From positions 122,479 through 186,478 of the forward strand of contig JAADJD010000038.1 in the NCBI GenBank assembly GCA_013150955.1: a stretch of 64,000 bases of DNA. Direction: 5' to 3'. This stretch comes from Calditrichota bacterium (lineage in GTDB: Bacteria > Calditrichota > Calditrichia > RBG-13-44-9 > J042). Position numbers and translations under genes: made by a program. Shown in pieces: positions 18,292-35,112 of this stretch; the first letter of the stretch is position 1, and every line of letters begins with the position of its first letter. The notes below the pieces were generated by a model that was not told the DNA's origin, did no database searches, and saw nothing but the letters and a program-made list of their open reading frames with translations.

Positions 18292-20937
18292 TCACTTTAC
18301 CAATAACATCTTGCGGATGTGAACAAATTCTCCTGCCTGGAACCGATATACATAAATTCCACTGGATACAGCTTTTCCACGATCGTCCCGACCATTCCAA
18401 AAAACCCTATATTCTCCTGCCGGTTGTTGTGCACGGACTAATTTCCGCACCCGCTGTCCCAGCAAATTGAATATTTCAATTTCTACTTTTGCCGCTTTAG
18501 AAAGCCGATAAACAATTGTTGTTCCTGAATTAAATGGATTGGGATAATTTTTTATTAATGTAACTGTTCTATTATAGGCTTCGTTTGACCGAACAATATT
18601 TGTGATTTCAGAATTGACATCCAGCACATTGCTCCAGATATCCCATCCCGTGTGAAGATCACTTAACTGAGACCAAAACGAGATCAATTGATCCTGCCGT
18701 AATAACATGTATATATCTTTCTGATCAAATTTATCATTTCGGGGAATTTGAAAAACCGTGTCCAGAGGTTGGGAAAAACGCTGAAATCTTTGAGCAAATA
18801 TCCGCGATCCGTTGGTATTCACCTGCTGCCAACTCGCCACCCAATTTCTGTCGTCATCCATGGCCAAAGATATTTTTTTATGAAAATCAAATTGAATGCC
18901 ATCAGGCAATTGGAAGATCAACGAATCCTGAATGGAGCCATGGGATATAAGTTTCGCATAAATTGCTGACGGTGCCAGAACACTATCCTGGTCGATCCAG
19001 GCAACCAGAATATCGCCTTTTGAATTACCAATTATACCTGGAATACCTTGACCCAAAATAATTCGAACTGGATCATGAAGCACAATCTTTTCCCCTACAG
19101 GTTGAAATTGGTCGTCAAAATATCGCAAGACAAACATTGACGAATCATTGCCAAAGTCATAAGTTAGTAAGGTAACCTGGTTATTATAGAGGCTACCCAA
19201 TAAGACGATTTTTCCCGGTGGATCGAGAATTGGTTGCAGGCGTTTAAGAGTTTCTCCTTCCCTTGAAATAATTAAGGCATTTACATTTCCCATGTTTTCG
19301 CCATTCCAGAGAACGGCGAAACCTTGATCCGCCAATCCAATCAATTGAAAATTGGCATCCATCCACTCATCAATATCTAACCTCACCTTGGTGATTTCAG
19401 GATTGGTTGGATGACCGGTGATAATGGCCAACCAAATCAATACTTCGGCATACGTTCTTTCCTGCCATAGTACCGCCCAATCTCCCTGAGAATTGACCGC
19501 AACGCGAACCAGCTTATCGGCTTTCCCAGAGGGTTCTCCCCGAAGTTCGAATTCATTCCCCAACGCCGTTCCCTCAGCAGTTAAAAATCTTGCAAAAATG
19601 GAAGGCGTCCAATCTCGCTCATCTACCCAGGCAACCAGAATTCTTCCCAGACCATCCATTGTAGCTACCGGTAAGTATTGGGGAGCAGCAGAAAGTGTGT
19701 CATCCGATACCTGCCAATCCTCCATCAAATACTGCCCTTCAGTATCCATTCGGCTTAAGACTACTTGGCTAAGAACCCCAAGACCCGCCAATCGGGTTAT
19801 TAATACACCGTCCGGGAAAACAGCGAGATTTGGGGAATAATGCCGGTTATCCGTGTTTATAGTATCGATAAGTAATTTCTCAAAAAGGATTTCCCCCGAA
19901 AGGGGGTTCACTTTTTGCAAGATTACCCCAACTGCCGGGCCATTTTGCGACCAATAGACAACATCGGTGGTAAAGTAAAAATGGCCGCTGGTGTCAAATT
20001 CGACCTCCATTTTATCCAAATCGGGCTCAAACAACCACTCCCCTAACAAAAATACCGAATCAGGGGATTGGCCATCGGCTGTGAAATACCGTCCCTTTAA
20101 AAAATTATCTTCCCGCCAGACAATAACAAAATTATTATTCCGGTCATGAGCAATATCGATGGCAACAAAATATCTCCCCTCAAATGGGCTTACCAAAACC
20201 AGTGGATCAAATTCTCCGGTACTGCGAACAAATTTTTGATAATAAATCGAATTTCTTCCCTGAGTTGACCCTAAGTTAGCAAAATACAAATCTCCATTGG
20301 AATTAATGGACAAAGCTGGAATTCTATAGCCTCTTCCAACTGCTCCACTCAATGACAGCAATGGCGTCAGTGGTTGACCGTATACATCCAATACCTGAAA
20401 AAACGTTTGCCCTGTGTAATACAAATAAACCAGGGTTGTATCCGTAATAAATTGCACATCAAAACCATAAAGCAATCCTGGTAAATCTAGCTGCAATAAA
20501 TCTCTGATTTTTTGTCCCGATTCATTAAAAAGCTGTATGAAAATGGTTGCAATAAACCGAGAGGATGCTTGTTCTCGCTCCCCCCGCACATAGCCAATGA
20601 CAATTTGATTCCTCCGATTAATATCCGTTTCATAATAAAAAATTGTTTTCCTGCCGTCGGGGGGAACGAACAGAATTGTCTCGGTGGAAGAATTCCCCCT
20701 GGGCAATATCTGTTTACCTCTTATGGTGTACTGATAATAATCCCATTCCTTCCATGTTACCACGGCCAATTGATTGTTAGTGACCACCCGGGGTGAATAA
20801 TAGATCTGTTTTACTTGACCGGTGAGGCCATTTACACGATAATCCGGAATGAAGGTATCCAGAAACTGGGCGTGAATTATAAAAGGAAACCACCCTACCA
20901 TTCCCCCGAAAATCCAAAGCAAACGGGAAATTGACAT
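18292..20937 (-). CDS. Large exported protein with Por/FlgD-like C-terminal sorting tail
   Basis: This 881-residue protein has an N-terminal signal peptide (MSISRLLWIFGGMVGWFPFI, cleavage after HAQ). It then has about 750 residues of beta-rich, loosely repeating sequence with recurring blocks such as DGLGRILVAWVDERD and NSKGDILVAWIDQD, reminiscent of a beta-propeller. The C-terminus has a FlgD-type Ig-like module: NYPNPFNSGTTIVYRLSK, FNLLGQRVRKLV, and SSGIYVYRFQAGE. In FCB bacteria such tails direct secretion across the outer membrane. The function of the mature protein is unknown. Long AT-rich DNA lies upstream. Confidence 0.8.
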   Translation of the reverse strand: MSISRLLWIFGGMVGWFPFIIHAQFLDTFIPDYRVNGLTGQVKQIYYSPRVVTNNQLAVVTWKEWDYYQYTIRGKQILPRGNSSTETILFVPPDGRKTIFYYETDINRRNQIVIGYVRGEREQASSRFIATIFIQLFNESGQKIRDLLQLDLPGLLYGFDVQFITDTTLVYLYYTGQTFFQVLDVYGQPLTPLLSLSGAVGRGYRIPALSINSNGDLYFANLGSTQGRNSIYYQKFVRSTGEFDPLVLVSPFEGRYFVAIDIAHDRNNNFVIVWREDNFLKGRYFTADGQSPDSVFLLGEWLFEPDLDKMEVEFDTSGHFYFTTDVVYWSQNGPAVGVILQKVNPLSGEILFEKLLIDTINTDNRHYSPNLAVFPDGVLITRLAGLGVLSQVVLSRMDTEGQYLMEDWQVSDDTLSAAPQYLPVATMDGLGRILVAWVDERDWTPSIFARFLTAEGTALGNEFELRGEPSGKADKLVRVAVNSQGDWAVLWQERTYAEVLIWLAIITGHPTNPEITKVRLDIDEWMDANFQLIGLADQGFAVLWNGENMGNVNALIISREGETLKRLQPILDPPGKIVLLGSLYNNQVTLLTYDFGNDSSMFVLRYFDDQFQPVGEKIVLHDPVRIILGQGIPGIIGNSKGDILVAWIDQDSVLAPSAIYAKLISHGSIQDSLIFQLPDGIQFDFHKKISLAMDDDRNWVASWQQVNTNGSRIFAQRFQRFSQPLDTVFQIPRNDKFDQKDIYMLLRQDQLISFWSQLSDLHTGWDIWSNVLDVNSEITNIVRSNEAYNRTVTLIKNYPNPFNSGTTIVYRLSKAAKVEIEIFNLLGQRVRKLVRAQQPAGEYRVFWNGRDDRGKAVSSGIYVYRFQAGEFVHIRKMLLVK

Positions 20938-22467: not shown

Positions 22468-25400
22468 TTAATGAGATTCGTAGCCTTTCAGCCCACCTTT
22501 GGGAACCACCAGTTTGAACAGATTGGGTGCGATCTCAAACACCCGATCATCCGCCACAAATCGGTAAACACCCCGGTGTTCTTCCACATGCACACCGGCC
22601 AGTTGGAGCGTATCCAGCACCATCTGCTGCCACCGGGGCCATTCCCGGGGTTCGATCTGTTCCAGCTTGCCATGAGTATACTGCCTGGGATGCAGCCGAT
22701 CGTAGGGGTCGAAAAACAACATCTTTCCGCGGGATGCGCCTCCCAGCAATTTGGTTCCCCGATAGGGTCGCTCCTGAATGCGCAACCGCCCCTGACTGTC
22801 GAAATACATCCCCCCAAAGAAAAACCGTCCCCCCATCAGCGATTCGCCGCAATATTTACTGGCACTTCCCAGAATGTGCACTTTCAGTTCCTGACAGCGG
22901 GGATCGTTCACCGAGTTCGTCCACGCGCGATCCACGATGTCCCCCAGGATGAACACACTACCCCCCTTTGACGCATATCCACACACCTTTCCAGCATTGC
23001 CAAACACGTACAGATTGCCGTGATGCATGGTCATGGCGCAAAAGTTCTGGGCGTTACCGTGCAATCGGATAGTACCGCCCTGCATGAACGCACCGAAATA
23101 CTCGCCCGGTATCCCGTACACATCCATTTCCACGTCATCGGTGTCGCCCTGCCCCATTACAGCGGTGGAGATGAGGCGTTGTCCATTCACCCGATACAGG
23201 ATGAAGCGACGCCAGCCCCGATCGTATGCCAGACTCAAAAATGCCGCCAGCGATCGTTGGGGATCGGTGCCCTCCGCGGCAAATCCACTGGCATCGATCA
23301 GCAGAGTCTGCCGTTCGGGATCCCTGGCCATGGGCACCTCCGTCTGCTGGCGGGTAGCCCGCACCCATCGATCCGGCTGACGATCGGCCAGTTCATCCAG
23401 CCACTGGTAGAACAACTTCCGGGTAACATCCAGCAGGGAACTCTTTGCTTTCTCCCCGGTATTCATCCGGCGCAAATAATCAATAAAATAAGTAAAGATG
23501 CGATTCACATCTGCAACGTGCGCATCTTCCGCCAGCTGCATCATCCGGGTAAATACCCAGCGGTACGTGTTAAAATCCCATTCCGGAAGCTGCTCCTCTA
23601 CCCATCGGCACAAAAACGTCACCCGGGATTCGCCATCCCGGCTCAATCCATCCTGAATGATGGCCTCCAGTTCCGGAGCATTTGCCGGCGTCTTCAACGC
23701 CTGTCGGCGCAGACTGTAATGCTGGCCGAATTTTTCCAGCGGAAGCGGCTGGCCATAGCGATCGATCAATTCGTAGCGCGTGATCCGTCCCTGCTCATCG
23801 TAATGATAGCGACTGATCATTCCATTGCTGACCAGCACCCGGTCTGCGGCGGCTCCATCGATCAGGCCTTCCTGATCCAGCAATTCCAGCATTTGTTGAA
23901 TGGCCTGTTCTTCAGACGCGATGATACTGAATGCCCGGGTTTCCCCGTTGCGTTCATCCACCCAGAATGCCGTGGTACTGGGTCGCAGATCGGCCGGATC
24001 CTTCAAATCCACCCGCTCGGTGACCCGCCTGTCCGGAAGATGCCGCAGACAGAGATATTGATAGGGGCCATCCGGTGAACTGGTAAATTCCACCCGCTGT
24101 ACCTCCTCCAGCTGCTGGCGAATCTCCGGTGGCATCAGGGCCAGGTCGTCCCCGGTGGTTGGGGAAAAACTCTCGAACAACGCCCAGTCCGGATACTCCA
24201 GCTCTTCCGCCAGCAGGTGAAATTTCAGGGACGCCACTTCGGTGTCCGTGGTAGCCAGCGGTGGCAGGCCGAACTGTTCCACCCGCTGTTTCAGGGTTTC
24301 GTAGTTGGTGGTTTCTCCATTGTGCGTCAGCGCGGTGTGAAGTTTGGCAAACGGATGCGCATTCATCTGTTCCACAATGGAACCGGTGGCCAGGCGCACG
24401 TGGATAATGTTGTTGGGGGATGGTGGGGTATCCCAGGGAATTTCCCGTCCAGCAGTCTTCCAGACGGCGAAATTCTTACCACAGGACATCACCGCCGCGA
24501 TGCGCCGAATGCGCTGCCGGTATTTCTCCTTGTGCCAGCGCCAGGGATGGGTACGGATAAAATCGCGCAGCAAGTACAGGAAGGTTTCACCATAAATATC
24601 AATAAATTCATCCGATAGCGGATCCGACTGGGTGAGTACCGGTAAATATTCTTTAAACGCGCGATTGGCTTTCACAAACTGCACCCAGCTTTCTGGCTCC
24701 ACTTCCCACACGTACAGAATCTGAGTCAACATCACGGAGTGGTTGAACACGAACAAATCCTCGGCCTTGCGGAGAAATTTTTCATGGGATCGGTAATTGT
24801 GTGCCTTCACGTCCGGAAAATATTCGCGAATGTAAGCAAACCGGGGAGACAACAGGATCTCCTGCTCAATAAACTCCTGCAGCACCCGCGGCTTGACCCG
24901 CACAAAAAACCGGTACACGTCTCCGGGATCGGTATTCTCATTCCCAAATTCCCGATAGTCGCGTTCCCGACCCCGGGAATCCCGTTTGTAGGGTTCCCTT
25001 ACCTTCTCGATTTCGGTTTCGCCGGCAAAATCGAAATAGGGATCCAGAAAGACTTTCTTGATTTTTTCCGCCAGTTTCGATCGGTATCTCAGCAATACTT
25101 GCCGCGCCTGGTAGCGAAACTCCGCCTCATCGGCAGGCACTTCCCCCTGCCGGCGCAGGGCATCCTCCACTTCCAGCTGCAGCTTCCCTTTCACCATGAT
25201 GCGATAGGCATAGTGATCGGGAAACTCCGGGAAGCAGAGCGTTTTCCCCACTCCAACACCGTCCATGCCACGATTCTTCATGGCGGCCAGCGTGCGATCC
25301 AGCACGTAGCTGGGAATGTTGTGAGTACCAATCACCGCGGCCACTCCACAATTGGATTGTCCTGTGGGATGGACAGCCTCTTTCTGCGCCGCCCGCTGCT

Positions 25401-28400
25401 TCAGATAATCCCGATACTGCCGGATGCGGAAATCCACCCGTTCCTTGAGTCCCAGCCACTGTATCTTGTCGAAGCGTCCCCGCAATTCCCGAATATCCCG
25501 AAAGCCCAGTCCCGCCAGCGCACGGATCACCTGCATCTGCATGATTAGAAAGGCATTGATCATCTGGCGGGAATTTTTCTCCACATCCCGCAGGTTTTGC
25601 ATGATCAAATTGCTGGTGGCAATGCCGCGGGAACAACCATCGTGACAGTTGCGATTGCGATCGCAGCCAATGGCCACCATGGGTGCGGTTCCCCAGATCA
25701 CACCATCGGCACCCAGGGCAATGGCTTTGATGACGTCTTCATAGGTACGAATGCCCCCGCTGACGAAGAACTTCACGTAGTTGCGCAACCCATCCTGCAC
25801 AAGCCGATCGTGAATCAGGGGAATGGCGTACTCGATGTGCATGCCCATCTGCCCCTTAATGATATTGGGAGATGCCCCGGTTCCCCCGCGGGGGCCGTCC
25901 AGCCAGAGCTCAATCTTCATCCCGTATTTGCGGGCATATTCGGAAAGCACCCGCGAGAGTTCTACCGTGTTGTCCTGAATTTCCCGCGCTTTTTCCCGCA
26001 GCACCTCCTCGGTATTGTCCTTGGCAATGCGTCCCAGTCCCGCGGCAATAAATTCAATATCCACCGATGGCGACACCTTAACGCTGACCACGGCGCGGGG
26101 GTTGATCATCCGCACAATATCAATAAACGCCTTCACATCCTCAATGGAATAACAATTGTGAAACGGGAATGGGGAGATGATGCTGGTGTACGACAGGCCG
26201 ATGACTTCCTCGGTCAGGCGCAAAATGTGCTCAAACTCGATGGGATCCAGTTTCCCTTCCGCATTCAGCTGATACGCCGTCTGTTGAATCTGCCACAGCC
26301 AGTGTTTCAATTCCGGAAAGATCTCGTTTTCATCGTAAGCGCGCTGCAGATGTGGCGAGGCCTCCTGCGCCACCGCTTTTAACGGATGATGGGCTTCTCG
26401 CTCAATCTTTTCGATTTTCTGGATCAGCTGCTGGATCTTCTCGTTGTCCAGGTATTCCAGCCCTTCCACGCCCCGCAAATAGGCCACCAGCTTGTTCACC
26501 TTTTGCGCCAGGATGTGCCCCCCAATGCCCATCTTGGCCCCCTGGCTGTAGGCAATTACCACCCGGCGGGCCTTCTTGATGGTTTCCTTGGTGACGCCAA
26601 ACAGGCCCGTTTTTAACTCCGTGGACACGTACGGCTCATCTTCTTTGTCCACCACCACATAGAACAAAAACGGCTGCAATTCCGGGTACTGATTGAGCGT
26701 TTCAAAAATGCGGGGGTGTTTTTCCGGTGTAATCCCATTTTTTTGCAAAATTTCCTTGATCTCCCGAACGGTGTAGTGCCGATCGTGCTGGAAGTAGGGT
26801 TTCATGACCTGAATATCCGGCTCGGTAAAGAAGATTGGCTCCCCTTTGCGATTCAGGAAGAAACAGGTGGGATAGCCTCCCTCACCGGTGTCGTACTGAA
26901 TGCCCAGTTCTCGGGCGGCAATCACGTGGGCCCGCCAGCTGTCCAGACCAATCGACCCCACGGACTTTCCGCCAAACATCCAGGGTGCGCGCAAAATTAG
27001 GTCTTTATCCAGCATCACCGCGGTTTTTACCCGATCCAGCTCCTCCTCTGGAATGCGATCCGGATCCCGCTGGTACAGAATTTTCATCACATCGAAACCA
27101 TCACCCAGCAGGCCGGTGCCTTTCACATTGCGCAGCTCGGCCATCTGCAAATCCCCGGCAGCCATGCGTCCCAGCGTCTCAATCACCTCGCCCGGCCAGA
27201 CGTGATCCCGGTGATAAACCGACAGGTTCACCTCATCCAGGTGGTAAAAATCGTGTGGCGGACGCAACGGCACCACCCGCTGCTTCAATTCCGTGTACCG
27301 GGGCGAAGCGTCTTCGGGCAGCGGTTCCGCCTCAATCAATTCCCGATTGAGCCGCTCGTAGACCTCCAGACGACGCTCATCTTCAAAGATTTGCTTCTGG
27401 ATGCGCTCTTCCAGTTCGTAAAAATCGATCAGGCGTCCCTCTTCCCCCACGGTTTTCTTCAAGTCCTTGAATCCGGCTGCACCCAGCACCTCCAGAATCT
27501 GCACCTTGCGGGATTCCATCTGATTATTCAGGCGCTGAACCGCCCAGTCAATGTCCAGATTCATCAGCTTCTCGGTGGTGGTTTTCCGCTCCAGAATGGC
27601 CCGGTAGGCGTAGGGATCCAGCGCCAGCAGGGCAGCAAAATCGATCAGAGTCGCGGCTGCCCCCCGCTGAATGGTCTTTTGACTGTCGGAAGCCAGCCGG
27701 ATGCCACCGGAAGCGATCAACGAAACCAGATGCCGCCGACCACTGGCCAGCAGGTAATGGTGAATGGCGCGCACGGCCTGAGAGGTCACAAAATAATTAT
27801 CTTTGTTCCGCAATCCATGAATGTGAATGACGTCCACACCCAGTTTCAAAAAGTCCTCGATCTTTTGCTGCAGGTGGGGCAAAATCTCCATTCCCCCGAT
27901 GATGTCGTACTCGGACACCTCCAGGTAACCGCAAATCAGCGGCGATTTGCCATTGGTCGCCGCCACCGAATTGCGAATGAACTCCACGGTTTGATCCATT
28001 TTGGGGTGATACAACACCTCGAACATGGGCATGCCCCATAGATCCGTCAAAAATTCTCGCGTCACATGGGGATGCACCTGCAAATGATCGATCAGCTCCT
28101 GATCAAAACGGGGAACAATGACCGGGGGTAGCTGGGTGTACCCGCCCTCTTCCTTCCAGAAATCATAATATTCCAGGAATCGATTGAATTTGATCACCAC
28201 CAGGGTGCCCTGCTGCTCGGCCACTTTAATGAAGGCCAGTTCCACCCGCCCGTTGCTTTCCAGTGGCACCGCGTTGTAAAGGATCGGGCTTTTTAATTTG
28301 AGGGTGGGGAATTCCGGATTGTGCAGGTTACCCGCTTCGTCGAACCGGCAATACCGGTAGCGGCGTCCCAGCGTGACCGAAAGCTCTTCATCGGGATCGC

Positions 28401-31137
28401 CCTCATGCAAACGATTCTGCGCCGGCCCCACGATGTGGAAATGGCTAAAACGCTCCGCATCGAAGCCAATCCCCATATGTCGATCGCCCTGCCCCATGCC
28501 GGAGACCGGTATCTGCCCGGTGGAGGCCTCCTTGTCGATTTCCATCAAAATGTCCTCGGTCAAATAAATATCGGCCATCTCGGTCAGCTCCGGCGACCGC
28601 TGGATGATGGTGGTATCCCGCAAAAACTGCTTGCGGCTTTCCCAGTAGCGTTTTTCCTCCAGATCCACCGCGTGTTCAATCAATTCATCAATGTATTCCC
28701 GTTCCGCCTGAATGGCCTTGTTCTGGGGACAGAAATTGATGCAGGCGTTGCACAGGGCACAGTTCTCATCCAGCAGAACCGGAATTTCCCGCGGTTTCCC
28801 GATGCGCGCACCATAGGTGCAGGCATTTTCGTGGGCACACATGCCACAACGGATGCAGGTTTCGGGATCGATGAACAGTTTTCCGTAGGGAAATCCCCGC
28901 GGATAAATAATTTTCAATCCGTGCTCCAGATGGGAGCGTTCTTCCTTCTGTTCCGCCAGGGTGTGTTCCCGGTACAGGGGACTCTGCTTCATGATGTCCC
29001 AGAAGCGCTCGATGAAATCGGACTTTTCCTCCTGGGAAATCCCCAGAGCCAGCTGGAAGCGGGTATCGGCTTCCACCAGATCGAACATACGCGTCAGGGG
29101 AATATCGGTGGGACACACGCGGGTGCAGTTGTCACAACGGGTGCAGACCAGGAATCCCAGCGCTTCCTGCTGACTGATCGTTTCCCCGCGAGCCAGGCGA
29201 ACGGCCGTCTTTCGCCGGGTGATGGGGGTGGCCACTCCCAGCAGTCCGAAAACGTCGCTGGTGGGACACACCCGCTCACAGCTGTCGCACTCGGCACAAT
29301 TCACCGCCATTTGCAAAATGGGATCGCGCTGGGTCTCCAGCCGGGGTGGAATGACCCGTGGAAAAATCAGTTTATTCAATTTCCAGAACAATCGGGGGAT
29401 GGAATACAGAGACATGCGGCGCCCATTCTCCTGGCCCCGCTGAAGCAGGCGCACGCCGTATTCCATGAAAATTGGGGTGAGCTTTTGAAATATTCGCAAA
29501 CTGAGCTTGCGACCCACCGGATTGACGAATTTTACCTGATTTATCAGCCGATGGGGATCCTGTTCTTTTTTCAACGCCCATAATTGTTGTACACGACCGG
29601 CCTGTCCTGGGCCCTCCATGCGCTTCATGAACGGCAAATTCCAGATGCCCACCCCATAGGGTCGGCCCCCAAAATGAATGGCCGCCTGCGTCATAAAGGG
29701 TACCAGTCCCAGATAGGTTTTGTGACGCAGGGTATCGGTATTGGCCAGCAAAATGGTCTGCAACAAAATTTCTCCACCGTTCAGGACATGGCCTTCGGTT
29801 TTCACGGGATTTTGTGTCCAGTCAGAAATGGCCGACTGAATGAAGGCCATGTATTCCGGGAAGCGGGCCAGGGGGACAATCGTTTCGCTGACCAGCATGG
29901 AAGGGCCTTTTTGCTTCATCTGCACCGGCTGGTAGCGGTGATCCCACAGCTTATGAGCCACCGATGCAGGCAGGCGATCGTACACCAGCCCCTGATAGCG
30001 CCGCCTCTCCCGCGAAGCACTGAACAATGGATATTTCAGCGCCGCCTGATAGTCCTCCCGGGTATCGAATTCCAGCACCACGGTGTGGTTTAGATCCTTC
30101 AGCTGCTCCACCACTTCCTGCTCCGCACGGGCACGGCGAATGAGCAGATCGTCCTCCTTCTCCAGCGCCCGATTCAGCTCCTGCTGCAATTTCTCCTTCT
30201 CAATTTCATAGGTGGTGATCAGGTAATTGCGATCGAAATACAGGATGGACGTGGGGCGCAATCCCCAGGCCTGGATCAGCTCCACAAACCGCTGAACGGA
30301 CTGGGCATTGGGGAAGGAAAAGGCAAACGGCTTGGAGACGTACGTCAGCGGCTGTACCCGGAGGGTTATTCCCGCAATAATACCCAGCTGGCCCTCGCTG
30401 GAAAACAGTTGATCAAAGGCTTCGTGCCCGGGATGTACGCTGATCCATTCCCCCTGCGGATTTAACAGCAGAATGGCCTCCACCGATTGCCGCACGTGAC
30501 CGTATTTATAGGCACCCAGTCCCAATCCACCGGTCGCCACCCAGCCGCAAATGGTTCCCGAATGGGGATTGGTAATATCCTGCCGTAAGGTAAATCCCTT
30601 TTGCCGCAGGTATTTGCGCATGTCCGCAAAAATAACGCCCGGCCCAACCGTCAACAGATTCTCCGCCGCATGCAGATGATAAAAATCCAGATGGGACAGA
30701 TCCAGAATCACCTCGTGGTTCATAGGAACCGCGCCGCCAAACGGCCAGGTACCCGCCCCCCGAATGGTATAATGCAGGCGATGTTGCCCGGCATACCGAA
30801 CGAACTGGCGCAAATCCTCCAGCGTGCCAGGACGCACCACAAAGCGGGCACGAATGGTCAGCAACACTTTCTTAAAAAATTCGGGAATGAAAGCCGTTCC
30901 CGAATCATTATGGTAAATGCGCTGTTGTACGTCAGACAGGGAGAACAGAACACTGGCATCGCTCAACAGGCCCCGCAACTCCGTATAAACGGGATCGCGT
31001 TCCAGGCCCTGCCCATCCTTTAATTCCGGGAACTTTTCGAACAACAGATCCAGCGCCTGATGTTGCGCCCGTACCCGATGCGCTGCCGATTGCTGAAACA
31101 GGGGATCAAAATAGGAAGAAATTGCCGAATTGCTCAT
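22468..31137 (-). CDS. Giant FAD-oxidase / polyferredoxin / permuted glutamate synthase fusion protein
   Basis: This is one uninterrupted 2889-residue frame. Domain order: a GlcD-like PCMH FAD domain (about 90-265, TIRGAGTWPFGGAVP) with its oxidase C-terminal part to about 560; two [4Fe-4S] motifs (CAECDSCERVCP at 614, CTRCDNCTRVCP at 665) and two more (CIRCGMC at 761, CALCNACINFCP at 793); a degenerate barrel like the GltB central domain (about 870-1260); the FMN-binding synthase domain (about 1385-1845; GSIGLDS, DTGEGG, GPRGGTGASP, FVSGGIRTYEDV) with a cluster motif Cx5Cx3C at 1825; a class-II glutaminase domain from Cys1930 (NCGVAAVIG, HVRLATGS, THNGETTNYE, TDTE); and a GXGXG beta-helix (about 2640-2800). 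Canonical GltB has the glutaminase domain first. No gltD neighbour is present. Inferred role: glutamine plus 2-oxoglutarate to two glutamate, using electrons from an organic acid. The start is ATG at 31137; an adjacent TTG is possible. Confidence 0.85.
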   Translation of the reverse strand: MSNSAISSYFDPLFQQSAAHRVRAQHQALDLLFEKFPELKDGQGLERDPVYTELRGLLSDASVLFSLSDVQQRIYHNDSGTAFIPEFFKKVLLTIRARFVVRPGTLEDLRQFVRYAGQHRLHYTIRGAGTWPFGGAVPMNHEVILDLSHLDFYHLHAAENLLTVGPGVIFADMRKYLRQKGFTLRQDITNPHSGTICGWVATGGLGLGAYKYGHVRQSVEAILLLNPQGEWISVHPGHEAFDQLFSSEGQLGIIAGITLRVQPLTYVSKPFAFSFPNAQSVQRFVELIQAWGLRPTSILYFDRNYLITTYEIEKEKLQQELNRALEKEDDLLIRRARAEQEVVEQLKDLNHTVVLEFDTREDYQAALKYPLFSASRERRRYQGLVYDRLPASVAHKLWDHRYQPVQMKQKGPSMLVSETIVPLARFPEYMAFIQSAISDWTQNPVKTEGHVLNGGEILLQTILLANTDTLRHKTYLGLVPFMTQAAIHFGGRPYGVGIWNLPFMKRMEGPGQAGRVQQLWALKKEQDPHRLINQVKFVNPVGRKLSLRIFQKLTPIFMEYGVRLLQRGQENGRRMSLYSIPRLFWKLNKLIFPRVIPPRLETQRDPILQMAVNCAECDSCERVCPTSDVFGLLGVATPITRRKTAVRLARGETISQQEALGFLVCTRCDNCTRVCPTDIPLTRMFDLVEADTRFQLALGISQEEKSDFIERFWDIMKQSPLYREHTLAEQKEERSHLEHGLKIIYPRGFPYGKLFIDPETCIRCGMCAHENACTYGARIGKPREIPVLLDENCALCNACINFCPQNKAIQAEREYIDELIEHAVDLEEKRYWESRKQFLRDTTIIQRSPELTEMADIYLTEDILMEIDKEASTGQIPVSGMGQGDRHMGIGFDAERFSHFHIVGPAQNRLHEGDPDEELSVTLGRRYRYCRFDEAGNLHNPEFPTLKLKSPILYNAVPLESNGRVELAFIKVAEQQGTLVVIKFNRFLEYYDFWKEEGGYTQLPPVIVPRFDQELIDHLQVHPHVTREFLTDLWGMPMFEVLYHPKMDQTVEFIRNSVAATNGKSPLICGYLEVSEYDIIGGMEILPHLQQKIEDFLKLGVDVIHIHGLRNKDNYFVTSQAVRAIHHYLLASGRRHLVSLIASGGIRLASDSQKTIQRGAAATLIDFAALLALDPYAYRAILERKTTTEKLMNLDIDWAVQRLNNQMESRKVQILEVLGAAGFKDLKKTVGEEGRLIDFYELEERIQKQIFEDERRLEVYERLNRELIEAEPLPEDASPRYTELKQRVVPLRPPHDFYHLDEVNLSVYHRDHVWPGEVIETLGRMAAGDLQMAELRNVKGTGLLGDGFDVMKILYQRDPDRIPEEELDRVKTAVMLDKDLILRAPWMFGGKSVGSIGLDSWRAHVIAARELGIQYDTGEGGYPTCFFLNRKGEPIFFTEPDIQVMKPYFQHDRHYTVREIKEILQKNGITPEKHPRIFETLNQYPELQPFLFYVVVDKEDEPYVSTELKTGLFGVTKETIKKARRVVIAYSQGAKMGIGGHILAQKVNKLVAYLRGVEGLEYLDNEKIQQLIQKIEKIEREAHHPLKAVAQEASPHLQRAYDENEIFPELKHWLWQIQQTAYQLNAEGKLDPIEFEHILRLTEEVIGLSYTSIISPFPFHNCYSIEDVKAFIDIVRMINPRAVVSVKVSPSVDIEFIAAGLGRIAKDNTEEVLREKAREIQDNTVELSRVLSEYARKYGMKIELWLDGPRGGTGASPNIIKGQMGMHIEYAIPLIHDRLVQDGLRNYVKFFVSGGIRTYEDVIKAIALGADGVIWGTAPMVAIGCDRNRNCHDGCSRGIATSNLIMQNLRDVEKNSRQMINAFLIMQMQVIRALAGLGFRDIRELRGRFDKIQWLGLKERVDFRIRQYRDYLKQRAAQKEAVHPTGQSNCGVAAVIGTHNIPSYVLDRTLAAMKNRGMDGVGVGKTLCFPEFPDHYAYRIMVKGKLQLEVEDALRRQGEVPADEAEFRYQARQVLLRYRSKLAEKIKKVFLDPYFDFAGETEIEKVREPYKRDSRGRERDYREFGNENTDPGDVYRFFVRVKPRVLQEFIEQEILLSPRFAYIREYFPDVKAHNYRSHEKFLRKAEDLFVFNHSVMLTQILYVWEVEPESWVQFVKANRAFKEYLPVLTQSDPLSDEFIDIYGETFLYLLRDFIRTHPWRWHKEKYRQRIRRIAAVMSCGKNFAVWKTAGREIPWDTPPSPNNIIHVRLATGSIVEQMNAHPFAKLHTALTHNGETTNYETLKQRVEQFGLPPLATTDTEVASLKFHLLAEELEYPDWALFESFSPTTGDDLALMPPEIRQQLEEVQRVEFTSSPDGPYQYLCLRHLPDRRVTERVDLKDPADLRPSTTAFWVDERNGETRAFSIIASEEQAIQQMLELLDQEGLIDGAAADRVLVSNGMISRYHYDEQGRITRYELIDRYGQPLPLEKFGQHYSLRRQALKTPANAPELEAIIQDGLSRDGESRVTFLCRWVEEQLPEWDFNTYRWVFTRMMQLAEDAHVADVNRIFTYFIDYLRRMNTGEKAKSSLLDVTRKLFYQWLDELADRQPDRWVRATRQQTEVPMARDPERQTLLIDASGFAAEGTDPQRSLAAFLSLAYDRGWRRFILYRVNGQRLISTAVMGQGDTDDVEMDVYGIPGEYFGAFMQGGTIRLHGNAQNFCAMTMHHGNLYVFGNAGKVCGYASKGGSVFILGDIVDRAWTNSVNDPRCQELKVHILGSASKYCGESLMGGRFFFGGMYFDSQGRLRIQERPYRGTKLLGGASRGKMLFFDPYDRLHPRQYTHGKLEQIEPREWPRWQQMVLDTLQLAGVHVEEHRGVYRFVADDRVFEIAPNLFKLVVPKGGLKGYESH

Positions 31138-31446
31138 CAAAATATTCCAATTTTGTTTAATTTGAATTTCACAATTTCAAAGGGAGCCAAAATTATGCCC
31201 GAATGAACATCATTTTTTTGCAAACCATCAAAATTTAAAAATCAATTTTACGAAGAAAATCTACCAATTAAAAATCGGAAAATTTTTTCTGAAAATGAGG
31301 AAAAAGCGGAACTTGTGGAACCCGGAAAGGATTGCGAACGATGCGGTCAATATTTTCCATGGGGAATGCCGCAGATTACAAGCCTGCGGTACCTTTCCCT
31401 TTCCTTTCAGAAGAATCCGCCGTTTTTCCGGAGAAAAAGCAATCCA
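31138..31446. other. Intergenic region upstream of the glutamate synthase fusion
   Basis: These 309 bases hold no gene that I can support. The stretch directly upstream of the giant gene is AT-rich and should carry its promoter, but no pair of clear -35/-10 hexamers stands out. No element copy is present here. Confidence 0.5.
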
Positions 31447-32385: not shown

Positions 32386-33771
32386 CTATTTTAAAACCAC
32401 CATTTTCCGGATGGTGGTTTGGTCATTTACTCTGAGCACATAAAAATAGGTTCCCGATGGTAATAGAAAAGAGGACACCCTTACCTGATAAAAGCCCGGC
32501 AAATGCCGCTCATCCACCAAAACGTCCACCTCCCGACCCAGAAGATCATATATCTTCAGACTCACATGAGAGCTCAGCGGCACATAATAACGGATGATCG
32601 TTTCGCCATTAAAAGGGTTCGGGTAGTTTTGGAACAACTGAAATCTGGCTGAAAGATTTGGGGAATCGTGAATAATACCGGTTAAATCCGGATCGTAAAT
32701 CTCACACATTTCTGTGGGGAAAACAAGTGGAATACCTGTGGTATCCGTCCAGGAACGGCCACCAATACTCAAAATGCGTCCATCCGGAAGCAGATTCATG
32801 GTTGGGATCTCTTTGACAACGGGATAAGATCCCAAATAAACCGGCTGGAAGTTCTCCGGATCATACAACTCCCAGGTAATATTCACCGACCCACCCGCAA
32901 CCAGAATTCTTCCATTGGGCAACAATAAGGAGTAATGACTTATTCTTCCTTCAAACATATCCCCAACCCTTTGCCAGCTATTATTTTCAGGATCGTAAAG
33001 CTCACAGGAAGATAACCATTTGCGACGCTCCCTATCCCTTCCTCCCATGACCAAAACCCTTCCATCTGGAAGCAATATATCCGAATGCCGCTCCCTGGAG
33101 GAATCCAGTTCGGCGGCAAGCTGCCATTGCCCGGTATTCGGATCGAACAGCTCGCACCTCTTGACACTGGAACCGCCCACAACCAAAACCCGGCCATCCA
33201 TCAACAGGGTCGCCGTATGCCCTTTCCGCCCATAACGCATCGAATCAACGAATTGCCACCGTTCCAACCAGGGATCATAAATCTCCGCGCTTTTCTCATA
33301 GGGATAAGATAAACCCACAAATCCGCCCGTCACCAGCACCCTCCCATCCGATAAAAGCGTCGCGGTAAAAAAAGAATTCCTTTCCGTGTTCAATGAATCC
33401 GTCCACCGCCATTGCTCCGTTTCGGGATCAAAAATCTCGCAACTGCGGTTCTTATAACCCCCAATGGCCAATACTTCTCCTGTGTGCAATAGCACCAGCT
33501 TATGATTGGCCCGTCCACTGTTCATATTCGATGTATAGCGCCATTTGCCAGTGGATACATCATAGATCTCACAACTATCAGTAGGAGATTCCCTGTATAT
33601 GCTCCATCCACCGGTGACCAATACATCCCCACCTGGCAATACCACAGAGGCGTGTCCCTGCCTGGGGATACGCATCGAATCCGCAGCAATCCAGCCCCCA
33701 TATTGCTGGGAATAAGTGGATAAAGAAATACCGAATACCCAAAATAGAGAGAAAACAATATATCTTTTCAT
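32386..33771 (-). CDS. Exported kelch-repeat protein with Por-type sorting tail
   Basis: This 461-residue protein starts MKRYIVFSLFWVFGISLSTY, a signal peptide ending near YSQ. It has about seven kelch-type blades, recognisable as DGRVLVMGGRDRE, DGRVLVVGGSSVK, NGRILVAGGSVN and DGRILSIGGRSW, each with CEIYDPE-like strands; together these predict a beta-propeller. The C-terminus is a FlgD-like sorting module (NYPNPFNGETIIRYYVPLSS, IYDLLGREVDVLVD, SGTYFYVLRV). It is likely secreted or cell-surface, binding an unknown ligand. AAAGGA lies very close to the ATG at 33771; an in-frame TTG at 33783 is an alternative. The gene follows the next one by 18 bases, forming an operon. Confidence 0.83.
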   Translation of the reverse strand: MKRYIVFSLFWVFGISLSTYSQQYGGWIAADSMRIPRQGHASVVLPGGDVLVTGGWSIYRESPTDSCEIYDVSTGKWRYTSNMNSGRANHKLVLLHTGEVLAIGGYKNRSCEIFDPETEQWRWTDSLNTERNSFFTATLLSDGRVLVTGGFVGLSYPYEKSAEIYDPWLERWQFVDSMRYGRKGHTATLLMDGRVLVVGGSSVKRCELFDPNTGQWQLAAELDSSRERHSDILLPDGRVLVMGGRDRERRKWLSSCELYDPENNSWQRVGDMFEGRISHYSLLLPNGRILVAGGSVNITWELYDPENFQPVYLGSYPVVKEIPTMNLLPDGRILSIGGRSWTDTTGIPLVFPTEMCEIYDPDLTGIIHDSPNLSARFQLFQNYPNPFNGETIIRYYVPLSSHVSLKIYDLLGREVDVLVDERHLPGFYQVRVSSFLLPSGTYFYVLRVNDQTTIRKMVVLK

Positions 33772-33789
33772 TTCCTTTATCAACCGGAT

Positions 33790-34686
33790 CTACCGCATCA
33801 AAATCATCCTTTTTGCCGACACAAAAACGCCATTAATTTTCATTACATACAGGTAAATCCCACTGGACAAATCCCAGGCCTCAAAATCCACCAAATAGTT
33901 CCCCGGATAATGGACTTTAGAAACCAGCGTTGCGATTTGCCGACCCAGGCCATCGTAGACGATGATTTCCACAAACGCTTTTTCTTTTATCGTATAAGGG
34001 ATTTGCGTAACACCCGGATTAAATGGATTGGGAAGGTTTTGATGCAGGATGAAATCGTCTAAATATGCCTCGTCCGCGGGGGGAATGAATGTTGGCTTTT
34101 TATACAGCACAATCGCTTCCATCATAAAATCGCAGGCGTGATGCCACTTTTGTTCCTCTTTAGAATAGAAATAGCTATTCCCATATTTTTGAGCAGGAGT
34201 ATCGATTGATATTGTACTAAACACATCGAAAACGTTTTGCTCGAGCAAAATCCAGAAGGTATCCTCAATAGAAATATTCCTTAATCCCACACTGGTTAGA
34301 TCCACCTCCTTAAAAATTTTTATTCCATTGTCAGCAAATGTTGGGTTGTATTCACCATCCTGAACAGAAAACCAATACTTATAGACCTGGTTCTCCGACG
34401 AAGGAAATCTCCCACCCAAATGAATTGAATACGATACACTATCATACGGCTTGCCATATTGAACCCGGAAGGCCAATATATCATAAACGACGTATCCGGA
34501 GTCCCTGGCGTTGCTGTCCGCCTTAAACAACACCGCAATGGGGCTCCTCTCTTCCGATTGAAAAACATAAGCACAAAAATTTCCAGAATCGGGTACATAT
34601 TCGTAATAATATTTCAGGGTGTCCAATCGTTGAGAATATGCATTATACATGCATAAAAAAAGCATAAACGCAATCACCCGATACAT
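33790..34686 (-). CDS. Exported protein with Por-type sorting tail
   Basis: This 298-residue protein starts MYRVIAFMLFLCMYNAYSQ (signal peptide), with GGAG 8 bases before the ATG at 34686; an in-frame ATG at 34716 lies further upstream without such a site. The middle 190 residues are unassigned beta-rich sequence. The tail is typical: NLPNPFNPGVTQIPYTIKEK, YDGLGRQIATLVS, SSGIYLYVMKINGVFVS. It is the first gene of a pair with the kelch protein. The function is unknown; export by a sorting-tail pathway is inferred. Confidence 0.75.
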   Translation of the reverse strand: MYRVIAFMLFLCMYNAYSQRLDTLKYYYEYVPDSGNFCAYVFQSEERSPIAVLFKADSNARDSGYVVYDILAFRVQYGKPYDSVSYSIHLGGRFPSSENQVYKYWFSVQDGEYNPTFADNGIKIFKEVDLTSVGLRNISIEDTFWILLEQNVFDVFSTISIDTPAQKYGNSYFYSKEEQKWHHACDFMMEAIVLYKKPTFIPPADEAYLDDFILHQNLPNPFNPGVTQIPYTIKEKAFVEIIVYDGLGRQIATLVSKVHYPGNYLVDFEAWDLSSGIYLYVMKINGVFVSAKRMILMR

Positions 34687-35112
34687 TGGATTTTCTCCGT
34701 AAATTTTTAATTTCATTTCTTCGAATTTTAAAACTCACCCGGAAATGCGGTTTAAAAGCATATCTAAAATTCCCTGATAAATTTGAAAGATTCGAAGAAA
34801 TAAGAAGTAAGACGATGAATGAAAATTCGTATTTTCATTCCTATCTATCGTTTGCCCACCCGAATTCTTCTGCATCCGGTTTGGTCTTTCCTGGGGGCAA
34901 TTCCACCTGTAAGGATCCGTTCAAGAAATGCGATTTCATTTTAATGAATATTTTCTTTGTTTTCAATAAAGAATCGATGGACAACTCATTTTTTTTAACG
35001 ATATGGCCATTGCCACACCACCGCTTTCACCCGCGACAGGCCGTTTATCCCTCACCAAACGCAACAATTTCAAACAGTCTCATTTTTTAGAATCTCATAA
35101 GCCCGGTTTAAA
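34687..35112. other. Intergenic region with no supported gene
   Basis: A plus-strand frame (34686-35090) is open here but lacks a ribosome-binding site and recognisable composition. The sequence should contain the promoter of the minus-strand sorting-tail pair. Nothing else stands out before element R8 begins. Confidence 0.45.

What the first reader, a model, noticed from the sequence alone, without database searches (positions are those of the whole stretch)
22468..31137. Single-chain glutamate synthase with its own organic-acid oxidase module and four Fe-S motifs
Seen directly: one 2889-codon frame with a PCMH/GlcD-like FAD domain, four CxxCxxC-type motifs, the GltB central, FMN, glutaminase and GXGXG domains. 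Known glutamate synthases take electrons from NADPH through GltD, from NADH, or from ferredoxin. Here the GltD role seems replaced by a lactate/glycolate-oxidase-like front end. Inference: the enzyme couples oxidation of a 2-hydroxyacid to glutamate formation.
Basis: partly seen in the sequence, partly recalled or inferred. Interest (0 to 1): 0.92.

Follow-up and report, generated by a model that had tools for sequence, protein, structure and literature searches.

The report
Giant glutamate synthase, new electron module
A single 2,890-residue bacterial gene joins a complete glutamate-making enzyme to its own flavin and iron-sulfur electron-input unit; the fusion is real and conserved in relatives, but the input unit lacks the residues that known lactate- or glycolate-type oxidases need, so what powers it is unknown.

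Summary
Observation confirmed: one open frame (22468-31140, minus strand, 2890 codons) holds a VAO/PCMH FAD module, four [4Fe-4S] motifs, two alpha/beta barrels (one FMN-type with [3Fe-4S] cysteines), a class-II glutaminase and a GXGXG domain. It is not a misassembly. Full-length homologues (55-86% identity) occur in about ten other genomes, all modules are under purifying selection (omega about 0.02-0.06), and more divergent giants exist. In the window's genome it is the only glutamate synthase found; no GltD Fe-S domain was found.

Interpretation partly supported. A GlcD/LctD-fold Fe-S module does stand where GltD would. But of the five residues strictly conserved and essential in D-2-hydroxyacid dehydrogenases, all homologues lack the Glu-His pair (Pro-Tyr instead) and the second metal histidine; only the arginine is kept everywhere. 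Oxidation of a 2-hydroxyacid by the known mechanism is therefore unlikely, and the donor is open.

New points: the glutaminase nucleophile (Cys1931) is internal, so activity predicts cleavage at Asn1930|Cys1931 into two chains. Relatives encode the same parts as two or three genes. The synthase core is a distinct lineage, neither canonical GltB nor archaeal-type. Verdict: new variant of a known kind.

The parts
22468..31140 (-). whole gene, 2890 codons from TTG (2889 from the ATG at 31137); residue numbers count the TTG as 1
   Evidence: full-length homologues
30439..30846 (-). FAD_binding_4 domain, residues 99-234 (VAO/PCMH fold)
   Evidence: fold of 46-542 matches LctD/D2HGDH/D-LDH, Z about 22
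29536..30324 (-). FAD-oxidase_C substrate (cap) domain, residues 273-535
29641..29667 (-). GRPYGVGIW, residues 492-500: PYG invariant in homologues, in place of the EHG of 2-hydroxyacid dehydrogenases
29113..29298 (-). first pair of [4Fe-4S] motifs (C615-C676), Fer4_8/GlcF-like
28729..28857 (-). second pair of [4Fe-4S] motifs (C762-C804), as in front of the FMN barrel of archaeal-type glutamate synthase
27391..28563 (-). first alpha/beta barrel (residues 860-1250), a duplicate of the FMN barrel without the GGTGASP motif; equivalent in place to the GltB central domain
25426..27009 (-). catalytic FMN barrel (residues 1378-1905), with Q1533, K1536, R1556 and GGTGASP
25633..25665 (-). [3Fe-4S] cysteines C1826, C1832, C1836
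25351..25425 (-). variable linker 1906-1930 ending TGQSN before the glutaminase Cys; predicted cleavage after Asn1930 (inference)
25348..25350 (-). Cys1931, predicted glutaminase nucleophile
23671..25350 (-). class-II glutamine amidotransferase, residues 1931-2490
24244..24396 (-). glutaminase residues R2249, N2274-G2275, D2299
22822..23145 (-). GXGXG domain, residues 2666-2773

Best explanation
A giant glutamate synthase. The second half hydrolyses glutamine at Cys1931, and the ammonia would pass to 2-oxoglutarate bound at the FMN barrel and be reduced to glutamate. A VAO/PCMH-type FAD module with two [4Fe-4S] clusters stands in for GltD: an unidentified donor reduces the FAD, and electrons run FAD -> first 2[4Fe-4S] -> second 2[4Fe-4S] -> [3Fe-4S] -> FMN. 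The donor is probably not a D-2-hydroxyacid oxidised by the usual metal/histidine mechanism. The translated chain is probably a precursor, cut (perhaps by itself) at Asn1930|Cys1931 into an electron-transfer/synthase chain of about 1930 residues and a glutaminase-GXGXG chain of about 960, the same parts that relatives encode as separate genes. Shown: domain content, conserved ligand and catalytic residues, conservation of the fusion, purifying selection, loss of hydroxyacid catalytic residues. Inferred: glutamate product, electron path, cleavage, donor class.
For: Domains. Invariant cysteines for four [4Fe-4S], and [3Fe-4S] cysteines aligned to GltB. Q1533/K1536/R1556 fall at the spacing of Azospirillum Q969/K972/R992 (role of those residues from memory). 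Glutaminase set C1931, R2249, N2274, G2275, D2299 conserved. Full-length homologues in many genomes, divergent giants, omega 0.02-0.06 in the main modules. Own genome: no canonical central domain, no GltD Fer4_20, one GlnA. Relatives with the core as 2-3 genes, including a glutaminase-GXGXG protein whose Cys follows a short leader. E. coli GltB reads RDN|CGFG, the same residue before Cys. Hydroxyacid residues lost but kept in two other proteins of this genome. FAD/Fe-S module a separate ORF in G110.
Against: No biochemistry; FAD, FMN and cluster binding inferred from sequence. The 1290-2480 model is poor (pLDDT 54), so glutaminase geometry around an internal Cys could not be examined. The genome also has three Glu/Leu/Phe/Val-type dehydrogenases, so it does not depend only on GS/GltS. 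No gene-neighbour support. An internal-Cys class-II glutaminase could be inactive, with free ammonia used instead.
Confidence: 0.7

Rival explanations
1. One reading: the FAD module oxidises a 2-hydroxyacid (lactate, glycolate, 2-hydroxyglutarate) and these electrons drive glutamate formation.
For: Fold and profile are closest to LctD, D2HGDH and D-LDH; the carboxylate-binding arginine equivalent R402 is kept; from general knowledge of redox potentials the coupling is feasible for lactate.
Against: Glu475-His476 replaced by Pro-Tyr and the second metal His absent in every homologue aligned; each of these is essential in D-2-HGDH and strictly conserved in D-LDH and GlcD. The fold Z-scores do not separate hydroxyacid enzymes clearly from other VAO/PCMH enzymes.
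Confidence: 0.15
2. Electrons come from a protein or NAD(P)H rather than an organic acid: ferredoxin or an electron-transfer flavoprotein docks on the Fe-S/FAD module, or NAD(P)H reduces the FAD as in MurB.
For: Established donors of glutamate synthases are NAD(P)H and ferredoxin (PMC8097209), and F420H2-dependent forms with a swapped input subunit have been proposed (PMC3448663). The fold is shared with LctD of the Ldh-EtfAB complex. A PY-motif relative lies in an Rnf/Nqr-like gene cluster.
Against: No NAD(P)-binding domain found; a pure ferredoxin-dependent enzyme would not need the FAD; no partner gene next to the giant.
Confidence: 0.4
3. The synthase half makes something other than glutamate, as N-methylglutamate synthase does with the same set of domains (from memory), or the glutaminase is inactive and ammonia or another amine is used.
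For: Internal Cys1931; glutamate dehydrogenases present; the FMN barrel is a lineage distinct from GltB, 30% identity.
Against: All five glutaminase residues and the 2-oxoglutarate-site residues conserved; no other glutamate synthase found in the genome.
Confidence: 0.12
4. Misassembly or chance fusion of separate genes.
For: A few homologues are split, at contig ends, assembly gaps or a probable frameshift.
Against: One frame in about ten independent assemblies at 55-86% identity, plus divergent 3.2-3.3 thousand-residue giants.
Confidence: 0.01

Closest known systems
Canonical bacterial glutamate synthase GltB/GltD (NADPH) and ferredoxin-GltS
   Same: Glutaminase, barrel pair, FMN with [3Fe-4S], GXGXG; FAD and two [4Fe-4S] on the input side in GltD
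   Different: Order is FAD-FeS-FeS-barrel-FMN barrel-glutaminase-GXGXG in one chain; input FAD module is VAO/PCMH, not adrenodoxin-reductase-like; four rather than two [4Fe-4S]; FMN barrel only 30% identical to E. coli GltB
Archaeal-type multi-gene glutamate synthase (e.g. L077: glutaminase, Fe-S+FMN barrel, GXGXG, with a FAD oxidoreductase)
   Same: Fe-S pair directly before a barrel; separate glutaminase and GXGXG parts; GGH in the FMN barrel
   Different: Unfused, one barrel, pyridine-nucleotide-type FAD oxidoreductase; 35% identity in the FMN barrel
Unfused relatives with two barrels and a glutaminase-GXGXG protein (L072, L073, L096)
   Same: Same core, 42-45% identity in the FMN barrel (L072, L073)
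   Different: Two or three genes, no FAD module attached, Cys after a leader of about 35 residues
LctD / GlcD / D-2-hydroxyglutarate dehydrogenase (VAO/PCMH)
   Same: Fold (Z about 22), FAD-binding regions, GlcF-like Fe-S pair
   Different: Metal site and catalytic Glu-His absent
[quoted passage not shown]
   Same: A glutamate synthase core with an exchanged electron-input subunit (PMC3448663)
   Different: FrhB/Fsr-N-type input, separate subunits

Membership tests
Glutamate synthase superfamily | FMN (Glu_synthase) barrel with GGTGASP and [3Fe-4S] cysteines | tested here: met
Glutamate synthase superfamily | class-II glutaminase with Cys, Arg, Asn-Gly, Asp | tested here: met
   mature N-terminal Cys not testable
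Glutamate synthase superfamily | GXGXG domain | tested here: met
   above curated cut-off
Glutamate synthase superfamily | glutamine- and 2-oxoglutarate-dependent glutamate formation | not testable with these tools
   needs assay
Canonical GltB | N-terminal glutaminase followed by the Pfam central domain | tested here: not met
   glutaminase at 1931; Glu_syn_central below cut-off (15.3 vs 22.8 bits); order differs
NAD(P)H-type GltS with GltD | GltD Fer4_20 domain in the genome | tested here: not met
   none in a 99.7% complete genome; controls positive
D-2-hydroxyacid dehydrogenases (GlcD, D-LDH, D2HGDH) | VAO/PCMH fold with FAD_binding_4 | tested here: met
D-2-hydroxyacid dehydrogenases (GlcD, D-LDH, D2HGDH) | Arg, His, His, Glu, His of the active site | tested here: not met
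   Arg kept; second His and Glu-His absent in all homologues aligned; first His uncertain
Ntn hydrolases | nucleophile freed at the N-terminus by proteolysis | not testable with these tools
   internal invariant Cys1931 after variable linker

The most novel reading that the evidence does not exclude
A glutamate synthase made as one about 320-kDa precursor that cuts itself in the middle to free its glutaminase cysteine, and that is driven by a new class of electron donor through a VAO/PCMH FAD module, bypassing NAD(P)H and ferredoxin.
Probability: 0.25. Interest if true: 0.85.

Novelty: new variant of a known kind. Interest (0 to 1): 0.62.

Why it matters
Glutamate synthase is a main entry point for nitrogen, and the known forms draw on NAD(P)H or ferredoxin. 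This family shows that the electron-input part has been exchanged for an unrelated flavoprotein in Calditrichota and KSB1-type bacteria, where in several genomes it is the only glutamate synthase found. The series from three genes to one giant chain makes the assembly of a complex enzyme traceable, and the internal glutaminase cysteine gives a sharp, testable prediction of cleavage.

Tried and rejected
Misassembly: rejected. Operon partner as donor clue: no conserved neighbours beyond one sister genome. Structure of 1290-2480: too low in confidence (pLDDT 54) to use; the model of 1-1190 is reliable only for the FAD module and parts of the first barrel. PDB profile search of the first barrel alone: no clear match. 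Literature: nothing on a glutamate synthase of this kind in Calditrichota or KSB1 in the library held, which lacks most subscription papers. Plasmid records: no place covering 80% of the chain. Residue-level review of GltS catalysis not held, so the 2-oxoglutarate-site residues are from memory.

Full report
OBSERVATION. Pfam finds FAD_binding_4 (99-234), FAD-oxidase_C (273-535), Fer4_8 (613-680), a second ferredoxin-type pair (756-811), Glu_synthase (up to 1880), a class-II glutaminase (2245-2303) and GXGXG (2666-2773). All sixteen cysteines of the four [4Fe-4S] motifs are invariant in 13 homologues. The profile alignment to GltB structures also places C1826, C1832 and C1836 on the [3Fe-4S] ligands.

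REALITY OF THE FUSION. Homologues run the full length in one frame in about ten other genomes, at 58-86% identity in the alignment and down to about 55% in the collection scan. These are metagenome-assembled genomes labelled Calditrichota, Calditrichia, KSB1 and a few other names. Between the window and its nearest relative dN/dS is 0.05 overall and 0.02-0.06 in every main module. Chance or misassembly is excluded.

DISTRIBUTION. In the window's phylum 15 of 40 genomes have the first barrel and 14 of 40 have canonical GltB (PF04898); only three (G006, G018, G021) have both. The window's genome has the giant but no canonical central domain, no GltD Fer4_20 domain, one glutamine synthetase and three dehydrogenases of the Glu/Leu/Phe/Val type. 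A second group (around G040) and a third (around G043) also hold members; the names of these groups were not given.

ANATOMY OF THE SYNTHASE HALF. The FMN barrel keeps GGTGASP, the [3Fe-4S] cysteines and Q1533/K1536/R1556, at the spacing of residues I recall as binding 2-oxoglutarate in Azospirillum GltS. Its identity is 41-45% to divergent and unfused relatives, 35% to an archaeal-type enzyme and 30% to E. coli GltB, so the core is a lineage of its own. The glutaminase keeps Cys1931, Arg2249, Asn2274-Gly2275 and Asp2299.

RELATIVES IN PIECES. L072 and L096 encode first barrel, FMN barrel and glutaminase-GXGXG as three genes. L073 has two genes (both barrels; glutaminase-GXGXG). L075 and L076 are giants of 3294 and 3229 residues, only about 22-30% identical to the window's. 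In G110 the FAD/Fe-S module is a separate 695-residue ORF, with an unrelated ORF between it and the rest.

INTERNAL NUCLEOPHILE. Class-II glutaminases use an N-terminal cysteine, freed by removal of Met or a propeptide (established knowledge). In unfused relatives the Cys follows about 15-35 residues, as in E. coli GltB (MLYDKSLERDN|CGFG). In the giant it follows 1930 residues and a variable linker ending in Q-S/T-N. If the glutaminase works, cleavage at Asn1930|Cys1931 is expected; this would restore the two-chain arrangement seen in relatives. This is inference.

THE FAD MODULE. A model of residues 1-1190 (mean pLDDT 64, better in the FAD module) matches LctD (Z 22.6), D-2-hydroxyglutarate dehydrogenase (22.4) and D-lactate dehydrogenase (22.4), with other VAO/PCMH enzymes close behind (about 20-21). 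[quoted passage not shown] Alignment with E. coli GlcD and YdiJ and the divergent giants shows Pro494-Tyr495 in place of Glu-His in every homologue, no second His, a possible first His (H451) only in the close group, and the Arg kept as R402. As a control, two other proteins of the same genome keep HASAGCLH and EHG. Free-standing relatives with the same PY motif and CCG domains exist; one (L093) lies in an Rnf/Nqr-like gene cluster. The module is therefore best read as an electron-input unit of unknown donor, and the 2-hydroxyacid inference is not supported.

MECHANISM PROPOSED. Donor -> FAD -> 2[4Fe-4S] -> 2[4Fe-4S] -> [3Fe-4S] -> FMN, by analogy with the linear path shown for NADPH-GltS (PMC8097209), with ammonia from the glutaminase adding to 2-oxoglutarate at FMN. 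Donor classes in my order: protein donor or NAD(P)H; a small organic reductant oxidised by a non-canonical site; a classical 2-hydroxyacid last.

NOVELTY. Exchange of the electron-input part has a precedent in the proposed F420H2-dependent enzyme of methanogens (PMC3448663), so this is a new variant of a known kind. No description of this fusion was found in the held literature.

Noticed in passing
L093:5415-8504 with L093:3-5338: A free-standing 1030-residue FAD_4/Fe-S/CCG protein with the motif GGRPYATG, next to a full set of Rnf/Nqr-like genes; an uncharacterised electron-input or -output protein for an ion pump.
   Followed up: partly
L079:4375-5757: In G110 an ORF with AlbA_2 and HATPase_c_4 domains sits exactly between the FAD/Fe-S module and the rest of the giant, splitting the gene at a module boundary.
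   Followed up: partly
L075:6082-15963, L076:6496-16182, L078:3-3614: Short repetitive or repeat-like peptides (e.g. ASSLPGRQDVCATF copies, ISSEARNLFI, KSEVQSPKSE) lie in frame in linkers of these giants, as if small repeats had inserted without breaking the frame.
   Followed up: no
L077:3072-10117: Archaeal-type glutamate synthase gene set with a gene that looks like GTP-dependent PEP carboxykinase (by eye), a ferredoxin-type and a FAD oxidoreductase gene between the FMN and GXGXG genes.
   Followed up: no
L041:9974-18573: Giant gene in two overlapping frames at about residue 1849, inside the FMN barrel; probably a frameshift in the assembly.
   Followed up: no
window 18292-20937 (-) and 32386-34716 (-): Genes beside the giant: one has a Por_Secre_tail sorting domain and two more end in similar tails by eye; they look like secreted surface proteins unrelated to the enzyme.
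   Followed up: partly
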